From the NCBI RefSeq assembly GCF_005145045.1, contig NZ_CP039691.1, positions 1 through 64,000 on the forward strand: DNA of 64,000 bases. The letters are read 5' to 3'. This document shows, in pieces, positions 26,945 through 33,651 of the stretch. The notes below the pieces were generated by a model. It saw only the letters and a program-made list of their open reading frames with translations. It was not told the origin of the DNA and ran no database searches. The stretch comes from Agrobacterium larrymoorei (GTDB lineage Bacteria > Pseudomonadota > Alphaproteobacteria > Rhizobiales > Rhizobiaceae). The position numbers and the translations under genes were made by a program. Position 1 is the first letter of the stretch. Each line of letters opens with the position of its first letter.

Positions 26945-28573
26945 CTACTCGCTGACGGCGCCGGTTTTCACCGCCTCGATATTGAAGGCTGCCGCCATCA
27001 GCGCCCTCGTATAATCTTCCTTCGGCGCTTCGAAGATGGTCTTTGCCGGGCCGCTTTCAACGATCTTGCCGTGGCGCATGACGATCACCTCATTGGCGAG
27101 CGCCTTGACCACTTTGAGGTCGTGGCTGATGAAGAGATAGGCCAGATCATGCTTGGCTTGCAGATGCCTCAGGAGGTCTACCACCTGCGCCTGCACGCTC
27201 ATGTCCAGCGCCGAGGTCGGTTCATCCAGCATGACGAAGCGGGGTTTCAGCACCATGGCGCGGGCGATTGCGATGCGCTGCCGCTGACCGCCAGAGAACT
27301 CGTGCGGGTAGCGCCAGCGGGTGGCGGGATCGAGCCCGACTTCCTCCAGCGCCTGCGCAACACGTCTATCGCGTTCATCGAAGGATAGGGATTTTTCGTG
27401 CACCTTAAGACCTTCGGCAATGATTTCACCAACCGACATGCGCGGGCTGAGCGAGCCGTAAGGGTCCTGAAACACCATTTGCAGCCTGTTACGAAGCGGC
27501 ATCATCATCGCATATGAATAGCTATCGATGGATTGGCCTATGAAGCTGATGCGGCCCTTGGACGAGATTAGTCGCGAAAGCGCGAGCCCAAGCGTCGTCT
27601 TGCCGGAACCGGATTCACCCACAACGCCAACCGTCTGCCCGGCGCGGAGCGTGATATCGATGCCATCGACGGCCTTGACGTGATCCACCACCTTGCGCAT
27701 CAGCCCGGCCTTGATCGGGAACCAGACCTTGATCTCGTCTCCCTGCATCACAATGGGCTTCCGATCATCGGCAGCCGGCGGCTCACCCTTCGGTTCTGCG
27801 GCGAGAAGGTGGCGAGTATAGGCGTGTTGCGGGTTGCTGAAGACCTGCTCAACCGTGCCCGTTTCCACGATCTTGCCCTTGGTCATGACGCAGACGCGGT
27901 CTGCAAATTTGCGCACGATGCCGAGATCATGGGTGATGAACAGCATGGACATACGATGCTGGTTCTTCAGCGCGCCGAGAAGCTCGAGGATCTGCGCCTG
28001 AACCGTGACGTCCAGTGCGGTCGTCGGTTCGTCGGCAATCAGAAGCTTAGGGCGGTTGGCGAGCGCCATGGCGATCATCACGCGCTGACGCTGGCCGCCG
28101 GAAAGCTCGTGCGGATAGGCCTTGAGGCGCTTTTCAGGTTCGCGAATGCCGACCTGATTGAGAAGTTCGAGGATGCGCTTGCGAGCCTCGGCACCGGTAA
28201 TCGCCTGATGAAGCTCCAATATCTCACCAATCTGCCGCTCGATGCTATGCAGCGGGTTAAGCGAGGTCATCGGCTCCTGAAAGATCATGGTGATATCGTT
28301 GCCGCGCACGGCGCGAAGCTCGCGCACCGATGCATGCAGCAAGTCCTTGCCTTCAAAGAGTATCTGGCCGGAGGGATGGCTTGCGGCAGGATAAGGCAAG
28401 AGTTTGAGAATGGAGTTGGCCGAGACCGATTTCCCCGAGCCGGACTCCCCCACCAACGCCAGGATTTCACCGGGCATGATGTCGAATGAGACATGGTCGA
28501 CAGCGAGGCTTTCCTTACCGCCCTGATGGAAGGCAACCGATAGATCGCTGACGGAGAGAAGGGGGCCAGTCAT
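26945..28573 (-). CDS. yejF: Peptide ABC transporter, fused double ATP-binding protein (YejF)
   Basis: A 542-residue protein with two complete ABC cassettes, as in YejF. The first has Walker A GESGSGKS near residue 41 and signature [15 protein letters not shown] near 160. The second has Walker A GESGSGKTT near 322 and signature FSGGQRQRIAIARAM near 430, with a linker near 270-290. It powers the YejABE importer for oligopeptides and peptide antibiotics; in Sinorhizobium YejABEF relates to uptake of and tolerance to host NCR peptides. Unusually, it does not follow yejE: its ATG overlaps the stop of a PIN-domain toxin gene by four bases (ATGA). Confidence 0.93.
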   Translation of the reverse strand: MTGPLLSVSDLSVAFHQGGKESLAVDHVSFDIMPGEILALVGESGSGKSVSANSILKLLPYPAASHPSGQILFEGKDLLHASVRELRAVRGNDITMIFQEPMTSLNPLHSIERQIGEILELHQAITGAEARKRILELLNQVGIREPEKRLKAYPHELSGGQRQRVMIAMALANRPKLLIADEPTTALDVTVQAQILELLGALKNQHRMSMLFITHDLGIVRKFADRVCVMTKGKIVETGTVEQVFSNPQHAYTRHLLAAEPKGEPPAADDRKPIVMQGDEIKVWFPIKAGLMRKVVDHVKAVDGIDITLRAGQTVGVVGESGSGKTTLGLALSRLISSKGRISFIGQSIDSYSYAMMMPLRNRLQMVFQDPYGSLSPRMSVGEIIAEGLKVHEKSLSFDERDRRVAQALEEVGLDPATRWRYPHEFSGGQRQRIAIARAMVLKPRFVMLDEPTSALDMSVQAQVVDLLRHLQAKHDLAYLFISHDLKVVKALANEVIVMRHGKIVESGPAKTIFEAPKEDYTRALMAAAFNIEAVKTGAVSE

Positions 28574-29070
28574 GCAGATAGGCTTTCGATAACACGCTTT
28601 AGCGTTTCGGAATCAGGCCGAATAATTTGTAGAGGTCTCGCATGTTTAACGACACCGTATCTTGTGTGGATCAGCGTATATTCTCCGCGAATCCCAAGAT
28701 CGTTGGTGAGAAAATGCGAACAACTTAGTCCTATCGCAGTGGACACGTGAATTGCATCCGGCAACTTTAAGGAGGGATACTGCGCTCGCAAAACCGCAGC
28801 ATAGTGTAAAATCGGCATTTCAACAGGAACGACCTTAAGCCAATCGCTCGACAATATCAGTCTCTGATATTGATCTATTAATTGATCGTTCTGGTCTTTG
28901 TAAGGTTTGACCACGAGCTCGGAAAAGGTCAGCTCGCTCGTTACAAATACAGGCGCTCTAAAGCTATCTACTAGAAAGAGGCTTGGAAGCAGCTCTCTCG
29001 TGGTCTCTTCACCCTCCATTGCCGTAATAAAAATGTTCGTATCGATGTAGACTTTTTCAATGCCGATCAT
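28570..29070 (-). CDS. vapC: PIN-domain ribonuclease toxin, VapC-like
   Basis: A 166-residue PIN-domain protein. The acidic active-site residues are all visible: Asp10 (VYIDTNIF), Glu51 (ELTFSELVV), Asp105 (LKLPDAIHVSTA) and Asp124 (FLTNDLGI). VapC toxins cut RNA when the antitoxin is lost. ATG 29070 shares one base with the antitoxin stop (TGATG), and its stop overlaps yejF (ATGA), so all three are translationally chained. The four acidic residues are intact, so it is probably active. Composition is AT-richer than the flanking transporter genes (23 and 25 G+C of 60 in two sampled lines), suggesting acquisition. Confidence 0.88.
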   Translation of the reverse strand: MIGIEKVYIDTNIFITAMEGEETTRELLPSLFLVDSFRAPVFVTSELTFSELVVKPYKDQNDQLIDQYQRLILSSDWLKVVPVEMPILHYAAVLRAQYPSLKLPDAIHVSTAIGLSCSHFLTNDLGIRGEYTLIHTRYGVVKHARPLQIIRPDSETLKRVIESLSA

Positions 29071-29363
29071 CAATCTTCCCACTCATCGCGAAGTTCGCGA
29101 ATACGGGCGACCGCCTCTTCTACTGGTACACGTCGTATATTGGTTTTTCTGTATTCAGCCATCGCGTCAATGGCTTCTCTCGCGGTCATCGACCTAGGAC
29201 GCGCATCCATCTCCGCGGCAAATCCTGAGAGCGTATCGTCATACAAAGGAGGAATATCCTCGACTTCCACGACAACCCGAACGGTGGCTTGCTCGTCAAG
29301 CCCCTCTCTGAGATCCTGAGGCAATTTGCTTGCAGGATAGTGTTCTCTAACCACCTTGTTCAT
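29070..29363 (-). CDS. Putative antitoxin partner of the PIN toxin
   Basis: A 97-residue acidic protein directly upstream of the toxin, ending in TGATG overlap. It lacks a recognisable AbrB, ribbon-helix-helix, Phd or HTH DNA-binding motif. The N-terminal half (PASKLPQDLREGLDEQATVRVVVEV) looks strand-rich, and the C-terminal half (residues 58-95, with EAVARIRELRDEWED) is helical and charged, as expected for a toxin-binding tail. Antitoxin function rests on position, size and overlap, not on a recognised family. GGATG lies upstream of ATG 29363. A 64-bp spacer separates it from yejE and could hold a promoter. Confidence 0.68.
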   Translation of the reverse strand: MNKVVREHYPASKLPQDLREGLDEQATVRVVVEVEDIPPLYDDTLSGFAAEMDARPRSMTAREAIDAMAEYRKTNIRRVPVEEAVARIRELRDEWED

Positions 29364-29427
29364 GTCTATTCATCCATTGTCAATATTCACGACTTTACTA
29401 CACAACCATTCAAAACACGACACTTCA

Positions 29428-30570
29428 TCACCGGAACGTCTTGCGCGGATCGAATGCATCGCGCACCGCTTCGCCGACGAAAATCAAGAGCGAAAGCATG
29501 ATCGACATGGTGAAGAAAGCTGTCAGCCCCAGCCATGGCGCCTGAAGATTGTTCTTGCCCTGCGCGATCATCTCACCCAGCGATGGTGAGCCCGGTGGCA
29601 TGCCGAAGCCGAGGAAGTCCAGCGAGGTCAGCGTCGTAATCGAGCCCGACAGGATGAAGGGCAGGAAAGTCAGCGTCGCCACCATGGCGTTTGGCAGCAG
29701 ATGCCGGAACATGATCGTGCCGTTGCCGACGCCGAGTGCGCGGGCTGCATTCACATATTCGAAATTTCGCGCCCGCAGGAATTCCGCGCGCACGACGCCT
29801 ACGAAGCCCACCCATGAGAACAGCAGCATGATGCCGAGCAGCACGAAGAAGCCAGGCGGCATGATGGCGGCAATGATCAGCAGGATATAAAGCACCGGCA
29901 TCGACGACCAGATTTCGATGAAACGCTGCATCAAAAGGTCCGTCCAGCCACCGAAATAGCCTTGAACGGCACCGGCGGTGACGCCAACGAGAGCAGAGGC
30001 GACGGTGAGCGCGAGGCCGAACAAAACGGAAATTCGGAAGCCGTAGATGATGCGCGACGCGACATCGCGCGCCTGATTATCCGTGCCCAGCCAGTTGAGA
30101 TTGCCAAGCGTGCAACCGGGGTCGACAGCGCCTTGCGGATAGCCCGAGCAACGCTCCTCGCGGTCCATTAGCCAGAAGGGCGGCGTGGGAGCTGAGTGCG
30201 GAATGTTGGAGTTCACCGTCTGATAGGAATAACGGATTGGCGGCCAGATCATCCAGCCATTTGCGTTGATCTCATCCTGAATGAAAGAGGATTTGTAATC
30301 GGTCTGGGCCAGAAAGCCACCAAACTTTTCTTCCGGGTAATCCACCAAGACAGGCACCAGAAGCTCGCCCTTGTATGAGGCGAGGATCGGCTTGTCGTTT
30401 GCCAGAAACTCTGCTCCGAGGCTGAGGCCGAAGAGCACGAGGAAAAGCCAGAACGACCAGTAGCCACGGCGATTGGCCTTGAAATTCTGCCAGCGACGAA
30501 TGCTCGTCGGCGAAAACCATGGCCGCTTTTGCGGCTGAGCCGCATCGTTAGAAGGTGCGGATACGCTCAT
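29428..30570 (-). CDS. yejE: Peptide ABC transporter permease (YejE)
   Basis: A 380-residue permease with a single N-terminal helix (about 35-55), a large periplasmic region, then five helices carrying the binding-protein-dependent permease EAA loop (NAARALGVGNGTIMFRHLLPNA). YejE-type features are the long insert before NWLGTDNQARDVASRIIYGFR and the ending GEAVRDAFDPRKTFR. The start ATG 30570 shares one base with the yejB stop (TGATG); the GTG three bases earlier is less likely. It is the partner permease of YejB. Confidence 0.93.
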   Translation of the reverse strand: MSVSAPSNDAAQPQKRPWFSPTSIRRWQNFKANRRGYWSFWLFLVLFGLSLGAEFLANDKPILASYKGELLVPVLVDYPEEKFGGFLAQTDYKSSFIQDEINANGWMIWPPIRYSYQTVNSNIPHSAPTPPFWLMDREERCSGYPQGAVDPGCTLGNLNWLGTDNQARDVASRIIYGFRISVLFGLALTVASALVGVTAGAVQGYFGGWTDLLMQRFIEIWSSMPVLYILLIIAAIMPPGFFVLLGIMLLFSWVGFVGVVRAEFLRARNFEYVNAARALGVGNGTIMFRHLLPNAMVATLTFLPFILSGSITTLTSLDFLGFGMPPGSPSLGEMIAQGKNNLQAPWLGLTAFFTMSIMLSLLIFVGEAVRDAFDPRKTFR

Positions 30571-31661
30571 CACACGTCCCTCCGCTCAAAGTCGATGCGC
30601 GGATCGATCCATGTGTAAATCAGGTCGGATATGAGGCTGACGACAAGGCCCATCAGCGAGAAGATGAACAGCGTTCCAAACACGATGGGGTAATCACGAT
30701 TGACGACGGAGAGATAGCCGAGGCGGCCAAGTCCATCGAGCGAGAAGATGTTTTCGATCAGCAGCGATCCCGTGAAGAAGGCGGAGATGAACGCGCCCGG
30801 AAAACCGGCGATCACAATCAGCATCGCATTGCGGAAGACATGGCCGTAAAGCACCTTGCGTTCCGACAGGCCTTTGGCGCGGGCCGTCACCACATATTGC
30901 TTCTTGATCTCATCGATGAAGGAGTTTTTCGTCAGGAGCGTCGTGGTGGCGAATGCTGAGAGAACAAGTGCTGTCAGCGGCAGAGCCAGATGCCAGAAAT
31001 AGTCGATGATCTTCTGCCACCATGTCAGCTCGGCAAAATTATCCGAGGTCAGACCGCGCAGCGGGAACCAGTCCAAGAACGAGCCGCCTGCGAAGAGCAC
31101 GATCAGCAGGATACCGAAAAGGAAGCTTGGCACCGCATAGCCGACAATGATGATGCCGGATGTCCAGACATCGAATTTCGACCCGTCTTCCGTCGCCTTC
31201 TTGATGCCGAGCGGAATGGAGATGGCGTAGGAGATGATGAGAATCCAGAAGCCCAGCGAAATCGACACGGGCATCTTGTCGATGATGAGGTCGATGACCG
31301 AGGAATTGCGGAAGAAGCTGTCGCCGAAATCGAAGCGGATATAATTCCACATCATGTCGAGGAAGCGCGTCAAAGGCGGTTTGTCGAAACCGAACTGCTT
31401 TTCGAGCTTGGCGATGAGTTCCGGATCGAGCCCCTGCGCACCGCGATATTTCGAGCCGCTTTCATCGAGCCCCCCACCGCCCATGAGATCGCCACCACCG
31501 GAGAGACGGTCGGCCGCGCTGTCGCCCGAGCCGGAAAGCTGGGCAACCACCTGCTCCACCGGGCCGCCCGGCGCAAACTGGATGACGAGGAAGGAAATGC
31601 CCATGATGCCGATGATGGTCGGGATCATAAGGGCCAGACGCCGCAGAATATAGGCTCCCAT
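30570..31661 (-). CDS. yejB: Peptide ABC transporter permease (YejB)
   Basis: A 363-residue permease. It begins with a typical DppB/YejB membrane start ([28 protein letters not shown]), has a Gly/Ser-rich periplasmic insert at about 48-80 ([19 protein letters not shown]), then five helices and the EAA-like loop [25 protein letters not shown] 31661 has GAGG seven bases upstream; the frame to 31730 is ignored. It lies 145 bp after yejA and is coupled to yejE. Confidence 0.93.
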
Positions 31662-31806: not shown

Positions 31807-33651
31807 TCATTTTGCCGCGCTGGCGGACCACCATGCATCGGGGAACGCAACGCCGTAATAGGGCAAGTCTTTCGGCCGAACGATGGTGTTCCAATAGGCT
31901 ATTGCCAATTCTCCGCGATAGAACTGCGGAATGACATAATTGTTTGCTAGCAACACACGATCAAGGGCGCGCGCTGCCGCAACCTGCTCTTCCCGGTTCG
32001 GCGCATAGATCACTTTTCTGACTAGCGCATCAACTGCCGGATTTTTTATGCCTGCCAAATTGCTCGAACCCTGCTTGTCGGCAGCGTTTGATCCCCAGTA
32101 ATCGGCCTGTTCATTTCCGGGATTAGGAAGAGTTGCCCAAAGTTTTATCGTCATATCGAAATCGAAACTGCGTTGACGGTTGGTATATTGCGAAGCGTCG
32201 ACGGTTCGAATGGTAGCATTGACTCCGATCTTTTTCAGATTCTGGACAAAGGGCAAGATGGTGCGTTCCATACCAGTCGAGTCGATCAAAAACTCGATGT
32301 CCAGTTGCTGGCCCGTCTGCACGTTGATCAACTTGTTGCCACGCAATTCATAGCCCGCTTCCTTCATCAACTTGACAGCTTCGCGCAGATTGTCACGAAA
32401 TCTCCCTGGATCACCGGCAACAGGATTTCGATATTCGGTTGTAAACACTTCCGGTGGAACCTGGTCCTTAAGCTCCTGCAGCAACTCCAGCTCCCGTCCT
32501 TCGGGGAGACCGGATGATGCAAGCTCACTGCCCATGAAGAAGCTATTGATCCGTTGAAACTGACCATAAGCGAGCGTTTTGTTGAGATCCTCAAAATCGA
32601 AAGCGAGGTTCAATGCCTTGCGAAGTTTAGGATTTTGGAATTTTTCGCGCCTGAGATTGGGTACGAATGCCTGCATAACGCCAACAGAGCGATAAATGTT
32701 TGGCAGCTCTTCTTTTTTGACACGCCCATCTTTGACGGCTGGAAAATCATAACCAGTTACCCACCGGCTGGAGGATGCCTCTCTTCGGAAGTCTACGGTG
32801 CCGGATTTGAACGCTTGGAACTCTACATCCTGATCTGCAAAAAACGTGTAATTGATCGTTTTGAAATTATGCTGGCCGATATTGACGTTGATATCCTTGC
32901 CCCAATAGTCATCACGCAATTCATATGTAATGGCAGAGCCTGGCGTAACCGACACGATTTTGTATGGACCTGAACCGACGACTGGTTCCAACGTGCCTCG
33001 TGAGATGTCCCGTGGTTTATTGTCAGGCCCGTTCGCCTCCCACCAGTGCTTAGGCAAAATAGGGAGCTGCCCAACGACTTGCGGAAGTTCGCGATTATTC
33101 TTTTCCTCGAAAGTAAACGTTACTTCACGATCCCCAGTCTTTTCGGCCTTTGTGACGTGGGTGAAGGTTATGGACATCGAAGGATTAAGTTCTTTGGCCT
33201 TGTCGAAGCTAAAAACGACATCTTCCGGCGTGACGGGTTGTCCATCCGAAAATTTTGCTTCCTTGCGCAGACGAAATGTCGCTTTGGAAATATCGTCCGG
33301 ATAACTAACAGCCTCGGCCAATAGACCATACGATGCAGAAAGCTCTTCTTCTGCGGATTTCATCAGAGTTTCGAAAACTAAAGTTAGCCCTTGCGCCATT
33401 TCGCCTTTAGCAAGGACAGGATTAAGAGTGTCGAATGTTCCTTCTGCGGACATCCTGAGCGTGCCGCCCTTCGGCGCATTCGGATTGACATAATCAAAGC
33501 GCTCGAAACCGTTGGGATGCTTCAGCTCTCCAACCGTTGCGATGCCGACGCGCCATTGTCCTTCATCCTGCGCGCGGGCGCTGATCGGAGAGACCAGAAG
33601 CGAAGCCGTCATCGCGAGGATAAGACCGGTTTTTGCGCTTGCCAAAGCCAT
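31807..33651 (-). CDS. yejA: Peptide ABC transporter substrate-binding protein (YejA)
   Basis: A 614-residue periplasmic solute-binding protein of family 5, with Sec signal LILAMTASLLVSPISARAQ (cleavage near residue 27) and the SBP_bac_5 signatures FDYVNPNAPKGGTLRMSAEGTFD and ATFRLRKEAKFSDGQPVTPEDVVFSFD. It delivers peptides to YejB/YejE. It is clearly AT-richer than the rest of the operon: three sampled 60-base lines (32641-, 32701-, 32821-) have 28, 27 and 23 G+C, against 37 in a line of mepA (34201-). This may mean the binding-protein gene was replaced or diverged by transfer. First gene of the operon. Confidence 0.93.
   Translation of the reverse strand: MALASAKTGLILAMTASLLVSPISARAQDEGQWRVGIATVGELKHPNGFERFDYVNPNAPKGGTLRMSAEGTFDTLNPVLAKGEMAQGLTLVFETLMKSAEEELSASYGLLAEAVSYPDDISKATFRLRKEAKFSDGQPVTPEDVVFSFDKAKELNPSMSITFTHVTKAEKTGDREVTFTFEEKNNRELPQVVGQLPILPKHWWEANGPDNKPRDISRGTLEPVVGSGPYKIVSVTPGSAITYELRDDYWGKDINVNIGQHNFKTINYTFFADQDVEFQAFKSGTVDFRREASSSRWVTGYDFPAVKDGRVKKEELPNIYRSVGVMQAFVPNLRREKFQNPKLRKALNLAFDFEDLNKTLAYGQFQRINSFFMGSELASSGLPEGRELELLQELKDQVPPEVFTTEYRNPVAGDPGRFRDNLREAVKLMKEAGYELRGNKLINVQTGQQLDIEFLIDSTGMERTILPFVQNLKKIGVNATIRTVDASQYTNRQRSFDFDMTIKLWATLPNPGNEQADYWGSNAADKQGSSNLAGIKNPAVDALVRKVIYAPNREEQVAAARALDRVLLANNYVIPQFYRGELAIAYWNTIVRPKDLPYYGVAFPDAWWSASAAK

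What the first reader, a model, noticed from the sequence alone, without database searches (positions are those of the whole stretch)
28570..29363. PIN-toxin/antitoxin pair embedded in the yejABEF peptide-importer operon
Between yejE and yejF, where these genes normally adjoin, there is a 97-residue antitoxin candidate and a 166-residue PIN toxin with all four acidic active-site residues (Asp10, Glu51, Asp105, Asp124). Antitoxin and toxin share TGATG, toxin and yejF share ATGA, so the ATPase gene of the importer is now translationally coupled to a toxin. The antitoxin has no DNA-binding motif that I recognise. The pair is AT-richer than the surrounding transporter genes except yejA. In Rhizobiaceae the importer handles antimicrobial and host peptides, so a toxin that depends on its transcription could tie importer retention to survival (inference).
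Basis: partly seen in the sequence, partly recalled or inferred. Interest (0 to 1): 0.75.

Follow-up and report, generated by a model that had tools for sequence, protein, structure and literature searches.

The report
Toxin pair locked in peptide-importer operon
A pair of bacterial genes that looks like an RNA-cutting toxin and its antidote sits inside the genes of a peptide importer, and the relatives of the pair that were found in other bacteria sit almost always at that same spot, where whole toxin versions appear to be swapped.

Summary
It is not a one-off. A profile of the 97-residue protein hit 50 of 397 genomes of the order, one copy each; 49 lie upstream of yejF, 48 between yejE and yejF. 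In 385 genomes of the class it gave only 3 marginal hits besides the window. A control VapC of the same genome shares a flanking gene in at most 5 of 30 loci, against 27 of 28 here. Within one genus, 10 of 12 pairs with YejF 93-97% identical have toxins only 37-46% identical; in 6 of the 12 the antitoxin keeps its N-terminus while its C-terminus and toxin differ, as a modular type II antitoxin would. Active-site residues are conserved and dN/dS is low. Six genomes keep a lone PIN gene. Best reading: a VapBC-like toxin-antitoxin cassette with an uncatalogued antitoxin, locked to one junction and exchanged as alleles. Toxicity and any functional tie to the importer are untested; structure prediction never ran.

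The parts
29070..29363 (-). 97-aa antitoxin candidate, uncatalogued family; conserved N-terminal YPxxKLPxDLREG stretch, variable middle, conserved C-terminal VARIRELRDEW stretch
   Evidence: no Pfam or NCBIfam match over cut-off, no PHROGs match at 0.1; N- and C-terminal parts behave as separate modules in several relatives
28570..29070 (-). 166-aa PIN-domain nuclease (toxin candidate), VapC-like, Asp10/Glu51/Asp105/Asp124
   Evidence: PF01850 E 1.6e-12; no NCBIfam match; active-site columns kept in 56-57 of 57; family profile matches a VapC structure 7by2 at 5.1e-10
26945..28573 (-). yejF, importer ATPase, start codon overlaps the toxin stop (ATGA)
29428..30573 (-). yejE, importer permease, upstream border of the cassette
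29364..29427 (-). 64-bp gap between yejE stop and antitoxin start; no promoter above shuffle level found in this genome
30570..31664 (-). yejB, importer permease
31807..33651 (-). yejA, substrate-binding protein; low GC like the pair

Best explanation
The pair is a VapBC-like type II toxin-antitoxin cassette with its own antitoxin family, locked to the yejE-yejF junction of Hyphomicrobiales. The PIN protein is a metal-dependent RNase (inferred from family and active site). The C-terminal segment of the antitoxin binds and blocks it (inferred from co-exchange with the toxin in one genus). The N-terminal domain probably dimerises or binds DNA (inferred). Cassettes are gained, lost and replaced by homologous recombination through the conserved yejE and yejF flanks, so that different toxin versions occupy one socket (the sequence pattern is shown; the mechanism is inferred). 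Because the toxin stop overlaps the yejF start, YejF is translated downstream of the toxin (anatomy shown; coupling inferred). When antitoxin supply fails, the antitoxin would decay and the nuclease would arrest growth (general type II logic from established knowledge, not shown here).
For: Site lock: 10 of 10 genome-contig loci found by antitoxin sequence alone have the pair between yejE and yejF. The antitoxin profile A1 hit 50 of 397 order genomes; the own locus, 29 of 29 loci of the best hits and 19 of 20 weaker hits lie upstream of yejF. The toxin profile A4 at E<=1e-30 gives 29 hits in 150 genomes, 28 within 250 bp of yejF (partly circular, since A4 was built from loci at yejF). In this genome A4 matches one place, although 13 places match PF01850. 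Control VapC family: at most 5 of 30 loci share a flank gene, against 27 of 28. No antitoxin hits in plasmids (4 queries), phages (1) or viral contigs (1). Allele exchange: in one genus 10 of 12 locus pairs with YejF 93-97% identical have toxins 37-46% identical, and in three such pairs profiled nucleotide identity falls only across the cassette. Modularity: L093/L094 and L087/L096 have antitoxin N-terminus 88-94%, C-terminus 29%, toxin 43-44%; in that genus C-terminus correlates with toxin (Mantel 0.584, p 0.003). Constraint: dN/dS 0.082-0.226 (toxin) and 0.035-0.245 (antitoxin) in 8 comparisons.
Against: Six genomes of two genera carry a PIN gene with no antitoxin and no room for one, which a strict toxin-antitoxin reading does not predict. 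Toxicity and neutralisation are not tested. Over all 54 loci the toxin and antitoxin trees correlate only weakly (Mantel 0.088, p 0.05), while antitoxin and YejF correlate at 0.41, so co-exchange of the two genes is seen clearly only in one genus. In that genus the N-terminus correlates with the toxin too (0.635), where one member, L079, differs throughout. The antitoxin fold is unknown; its AbrB/MazE-like look is weak (hhalign probability 21%). One profile hit lies elsewhere with a related PIN beside it (L097).
Confidence: 0.65

Rival explanations
1. Junction hotspot without functional link: the yejE-yejF junction simply tolerates insertions, and one toxin-antitoxin family became resident by history and flank recombination. 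The importer is irrelevant to what the pair does.
For: Other genes sit at the same junction in 7 of 37 enlarged junctions: a cation-efflux gene in 5 (one of them, L113, confirmed by Pfam; the others by eye), a GST-like gene in 1 (Pfam) and a VapB-type remnant in 1 (by eye). Afifella (L018) has a second, PF07704-type VapBC pair there. A review notes that locations of TA systems in E. coli chromosomes are conserved and that insertion loci are plastic (PMC7167474, passages).
Against: 28 of 37 enlarged junctions hold this one family: 20 with the antitoxin profile hit, 2 with a divergent pair, 6 with a lone PIN. In one genome where yejF lies apart from yejE, the pair lies with yejF (L099).
Confidence: 0.35
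2. Importer addiction: loss or silencing of the importer genes starves the antitoxin and frees the toxin, so importer loss is punished. Importer loss could otherwise be favoured, because peptide antibiotics enter through it.
For: Toxin stop and yejF start overlap by 4 bases in 38 of 58 loci. In S. meliloti, loss of YejABEF together with BacA gives phazolicin resistance (PMC10128002, passages).
Against: A promoter-like extended -10 motif precedes the antitoxin in 26 of 59 loci, so the pair may not need the yej promoter there. 91 of 128 linked yejE-yejF junctions are shorter than 150 bp and so have no room for the pair. Lone PIN genes have no antitoxin to starve.
Confidence: 0.18
3. Cis-acting regulator: the PIN nuclease trims the yej transcript near the junction and tunes the ATPase relative to the permeases; the small protein is its regulator rather than an antitoxin.
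For: Fixed position in the operon it would regulate; lone PIN genes of the same subfamily in six genomes; active site conserved.
Against: In one genus toxins diverge to about 40% identity while the flanking genes stay about 90% identical in DNA, which does not suit a nuclease whose target is that mRNA. One related pair occurs off-site (L097).
Confidence: 0.12

Closest known systems
VapBC type II toxin-antitoxin systems (PIN-domain toxin)
   Same: PIN protein with four acidic residues; small upstream gene overlapping it; family profile matches VapC structure 7by2
   Different: Antitoxin belongs to no Pfam or NCBIfam family at cut-off; nearly one genomic position across an order, where a control VapC family of the same genome is scattered
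E. coli toxin-antitoxin loci in fixed intercistronic positions (ccd between folA and apaH; yafNO behind dinB)
   Same: TA pair at a conserved chromosomal position, or in an operon with a host gene (PMC7167474, passages)
   Different: The passages seen speak of E. coli and Salmonella; here the link holds in at least 33 genera of an order (34 of 142 genera with hits, less the off-site one), and alleles appear to be replaced in place
VapC10 of Sinorhizobium meliloti (PMC10945364; search listing and start of abstract only)
   Same: A PIN toxin of a Rhizobiaceae member
   Different: What I saw does not mention yej; I did not compare the sequences

Membership tests
VapBC type II toxin-antitoxin | PIN domain toxin with conserved acidic active site | tested here: met
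   PF01850 over cut-off; D10, E51, D105, D124 columns in 57, 56, 57, 57 of 57
VapBC type II toxin-antitoxin | Small antitoxin gene directly upstream, close to or overlapping the toxin gene | tested here: met
   TGATG overlap in the window; spacing from -52 to +13 bases in relatives, with automatically chosen starts
VapBC type II toxin-antitoxin | Antitoxin of a known VapB family (such as RHH, AbrB/MazE, Phd, PSK) | tested here: not met
   No Pfam or NCBIfam family over cut-off for the window protein; among 53 members only scattered weak Pfam matches, best 4e-4. I therefore call it VapBC-like, with an uncatalogued antitoxin.
VapBC type II toxin-antitoxin | Modular antitoxin: separate N-terminal domain and toxin-binding C-terminus | tested here: inconclusive
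   In 6 of 12 close locus pairs of one genus the N-terminus is kept (76-94%) while C-terminus (29-38%) and toxin (38-44%) differ; binding itself not tested
VapBC type II toxin-antitoxin | Toxin arrests growth and antitoxin neutralises it | not testable with these tools
   needs expression in a laboratory strain
VapBC type II toxin-antitoxin | Autoregulation of the operon by the antitoxin | not testable with these tools
   a promoter-like motif exists in 26 of 59 loci, not in the window; binding not tested
AbrB/MazE-type antitoxin | Swapped-hairpin N-terminal domain | tested here: inconclusive
   hhalign of 53 antitoxins against 24 MazE-domain proteins: probability 21%, P 0.001; structure prediction never ran
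Plasmid- or phage-borne addiction module | Relatives on plasmids or phages | tested here: not met
   no match for 4 antitoxins in 72,556 plasmid records, for 1 in 50,697 phage records; in IMG/VR 15 stretches matched a pattern of A1, none confirmed

The most novel reading that the evidence does not exclude
The yejE-yejF junction is a dedicated, specificity-switching nuclease socket. A constant antitoxin N-terminus anchors the locus, interchangeable toxin plus antitoxin-C-terminus cassettes are swapped in by recombination, and the nuclease acts as a guard on peptide uptake: translation-blocking peptides that enter through Yej deplete the antitoxin, free the RNase, stop growth and shut the importer's own expression.
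Probability: 0.15. Interest if true: 0.88.

Novelty: new variant of a known kind. Interest (0 to 1): 0.62.

Why it matters
Why chromosomal toxin-antitoxin pairs persist and how they move is an open question (the review PMC7167474 says, in passages seen, that the mechanism of their movement and integration is not known). Here one family holds nearly a single address across an order, with empty sites in relatives, allele differences with sharp borders, antitoxin N/C exchanges and toxin-only versions. That makes the tests concrete: which part gives specificity, whether the neighbour gene matters, and what happens when the antitoxin is absent. The host operon takes part in muropeptide import in Agrobacterium (PMC9790009, passages) and in phazolicin uptake in Sinorhizobium (PMC10128002, passages), so a functional tie would bear on wall recycling and peptide-antibiotic uptake.

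Tried and rejected
Structure prediction was asked for (antitoxin A3, toxin A4) and for A3 again; each time the machine was busy and no job ran. The AbrB/MazE idea therefore rests on one weak profile comparison. only waited. A search of solved structures with A3 gave nothing significant (best E 0.054).

Simple vertical inheritance with losses was considered: the toxin tree shares 8 of 51 splits with the YejF tree (Mantel 0.16, p 0.009, 54 loci), so there is some shared history but exchange is needed as well. A donor tract in the window's flanks was looked for and not found: yejE and yejF stay more like same-genus relatives than like L009 or L010 up to the junction. A sigma-70-type promoter in the window's own gap was not found. 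PADLOC gave only a partial PglZ match of the antitoxin (E 0.0029, 13.8 bits), which I take as chance.

Rows left out: A3 uses 52 of the 59 antitoxins listed plus the window; A4 uses 56 of the 63 toxins plus the window (redundant or poorly bounded rows dropped; the broken toxins of L051 and L056 left out; L055 and L075 repeat L018 and L099). The trees leave out L051, L056, L058, L073, the lone PINs, L110 and L111. In one search my yejF table held 137 of 144 genomes, because the listing was cut. In one search four of five lone-PIN comparisons had saturated dS and gave no ratio. The second control VapC (L002) hit only 5 of 297 genomes and was not used. Profile searches score only the best 13 or 14 candidates per genome for A1 and A3, so distant off-site relatives may be missed.
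Full report
WHAT IS THERE. The window's minus strand reads yejA, yejB, yejE, a 97-aa ORF, a 166-aa PIN protein, yejF. The details of the finding hold: coordinates, the TGATG and ATGA overlaps, the 64-bp gap, four acidic residues and lower GC. The genome is probably Agrobacterium larrymoorei: a 3,360-base stretch of its contig C3 is 100% identical to plasmid record NZ_CP072170.1; the order is Hyphomicrobiales.

CLOSE RELATIVES LACK IT. The antitoxin protein is found in 1 of 39 same-genus genomes, the window's own. I inspected 29 of the 38 other genomes' junctions; in 29 of 29 yejE is followed directly by yejF. In a yejB+yejE tree of 30 same-genus loci the window is nested inside the genus, sister to L021 with support 1.0, and its flanks stay genus-like up to the junction. 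A precise gain in this lineage is the simplest reading; loss in the others is not excluded.

THE FAMILY HAS NEARLY ONE ADDRESS. A search of genome contigs with the antitoxin alone gave 10 loci from several genera, and in 10 of 10 the pair lies between yejE and yejF (in L018 another pair comes first). A profile of these 11 antitoxins (A1) hit 50 of 397 genomes of the order, one hit each, in 34 of 142 genera. The own locus and 29 of 29 loci of the best hits have yejF downstream, 28 of the 29 also yejE within the stretch held. Of the 20 weaker hits, 19 lie between yejE and yejF; the exception (L097, E 3.7e-4) lies beside a gene that looks to me like chorismate synthase, with a related PIN. So 49 of 50 are upstream of yejF and 48 of 50 between yejE and yejF. 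In the remaining case (L099) the best yejE match lies on another contig, the next gene upstream looks by eye like an unrelated permease, and the pair lies with yejF. A broader profile (A3) hit the window and 3 marginal places (E 4.4e-6 to 9.0e-4) in 385 genomes of the class, at least five of which belong to the order; none of the 3 loci held shows yejF or the toxin.

THE TOXIN SIDE AGREES. The toxin profile (A4) in 150 order genomes gives 29 hits at E<=1e-30, 28 of them within 250 bp of yejF; the exception is the genome of L097. The other hits are at 6.6e-22 or weaker. This is partly circular, because A4 was built from toxins at yejF; the antitoxin searches started from sequence alone. In the window's genome A4 hits one place, although 13 places match PF01850.

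CONTROL. Another VapC of the same genome (L004) has relatives in 30 of 297 order genomes. Among 30 loci (29 plus its own) no flanking ORF is shared by more than 5, against 27 of 28 for the yej pair.

JUNCTION CENSUS. In 150 order genomes, 128 have yejE and yejF close together: 91 with a gap under 150 bp and 37 larger. Of the 37: 20 have the antitoxin profile hit (one of them, G066/L056, with a truncated toxin); 2 have a pair with a divergent antitoxin (L110; L111 with a different, longer N-terminus); 6 have a lone PIN gene in a gap of 435-453 bp, too small for an antitoxin as well (L102-L107); 5 have a cation-efflux gene (L113 confirmed by Pfam, four by eye); 1 has a GST-like gene; 1 has a VapB-type remnant (by eye); in 2 my queries found nothing. 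The lone PINs score 94-110 bits with the pair-toxin profile A2, so I place them in the same subfamily. Their genomes have no antitoxin hit.

ALLELES DIFFER IN PLACE. In one unnamed genus (g27, ten loci, 45 pairs) 12 pairs have YejF 92.8-96.8% identical; in 10 of these the toxins are only 37.3-45.8% identical (L079/L092 96.4 and 37.3; L082/L087 96.4 and 41.4; L093/L094 95.3 and 42.7), and in 2 they are 90.7 and 98.7%. In those three named pairs nucleotide identity is about 90% before the antitoxin, about 50% through most of the cassette, and about 90% again from yejF. Over 54 loci, toxin and YejF trees share 8 of 51 splits (Mantel 0.16, p 0.009), antitoxin and YejF correlate at 0.41, toxin and antitoxin only at 0.088 (p 0.05).

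THE ANTITOXIN LOOKS MODULAR. In L087/L096 its first 33 residues are 94% identical, the rest 29%, the toxins 44%; in L093/L094 88, 29 and 43; in 6 of the 12 close pairs the N-terminus is kept at 76-94% with C-terminus at 29-38%. Within g27 the C-terminal part correlates with the toxin (0.584, p 0.003) and the toxin does not correlate with YejF (-0.231). The N-terminal part also correlates with the toxin there (0.635); L079 differs throughout. Across all 54 loci N-terminus against toxin is not significant (0.046, p 0.155) and C-terminus against toxin is (0.191, p 0.0005). This is what a constant head with a toxin-specific tail would give; the head's fold is unproven.

BOTH GENES ARE UNDER CONSTRAINT. 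dN/dS is 0.082-0.226 (toxin) and 0.035-0.245 (antitoxin) in eight comparisons, not all independent, and 0.072 in the one lone-PIN comparison that was not saturated. Active-site columns are near-invariant. The pair's GC is below that of the rest of its locus in 47 of 58 loci (mean difference -0.037).

EXPRESSION. The toxin-yejF overlap is 4 bases in 38 of 58 loci; the yejE-antitoxin gap has median 26 bp among the 55 loci where it is under 200 bp. An extended -10 motif TGnTAnnnT lies within 60 nt upstream of the antitoxin in 26 of 59 loci, against a shuffle mean of 0.78 (maximum 4 in 200), a coding control mean of 0.59 (maximum 4 in 200), and 0 of 18 pair-less junctions of the window's genus (18 of the 29 loci were used). 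The loci are not independent: ten of the 26 are the ten g27 loci. The window lacks the motif. So the pair may have its own promoter in many hosts and carry yejF along; in the window this is undecided.

NOT SEEN ON THE USUAL CARRIERS. No hits in plasmids (4 antitoxin queries), phages (1) or viral contigs (1). This fits movement by chromosomal recombination, but that is inference.

KNOWN WORK. YejBEF with YepA takes up muropeptides in A. tumefaciens (PMC9790009, passages), and YejABEF takes up phazolicin in S. meliloti (PMC10128002, passages). TA insertion at conserved, plastic sites is described for E. coli (PMC7167474, passages). Searches of the held library: yejABEF with toxin-antitoxin gave 3 papers, none on this by title and start of abstract; yejE with vapC gave 0; a Hyphomicrobiales combination gave 0; VapBC with microcin C or transporter operon gave 5, none on this by title and start of abstract. 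Most subscription papers are not held, so this is no proof of novelty.

VERDICT. A VapBC-like toxin-antitoxin cassette with an uncatalogued antitoxin, locked to yejE-yejF in Hyphomicrobiales and exchanged as alleles. Shown: anatomy, distribution, site lock, exchange pattern in one genus, constraint. Inferred: RNase activity, neutralisation, recombination mechanism, coupling to YejF. Against: lone PIN genes, one off-site pair, weak overall toxin-antitoxin tree agreement, and no test of toxicity.

Noticed in passing
L102-L107 (between yejE and yejF): Six genomes of two genera have a PIN gene alone between yejE and yejF, with no room for an antitoxin and no antitoxin-profile hit elsewhere in those genomes.
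   Followed up: partly
L018:4267-4901 (Afifella marina): A second VapBC pair (PF07704 antitoxin plus PIN) sits at the same yejE-yejF junction beside the pair studied here; L101 keeps what looks like the tail of such an antitoxin, and L060 has an 883-bp gap there whose content I did not examine.
   Followed up: partly
L112-L116 and L109: Five genomes have a cation-efflux gene (L113 by Pfam, the rest by eye) and one a glutathione S-transferase-like gene at the yejE-yejF junction.
   Followed up: partly
L111:300-698: Pair whose antitoxin has a different, longer N-terminus (looks Cro/YdaS-like to me from recall; no Pfam hit at 0.01) joined to a C-terminal tail like the usual one (weak, 11.8 bits): a possible domain swap.
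   Followed up: partly
window 31807-33651: yejA has GC 0.50 against 0.57-0.59 for yejB, yejE and yejF, and its C-terminal part is about 70-85% identical to same-genus relatives where YejB is 92-99%.
   Followed up: no
L097:2531-3243: Off-site relative of the pair, beside a gene that looks like chorismate synthase, with a divergent antitoxin and a PIN that the A4 profile hits at 2.7e-31.
   Followed up: partly
L051 and L056: Pairs in which the toxin is broken (split between frames in L051, truncated in L056) while the antitoxin frame is open.
   Followed up: no
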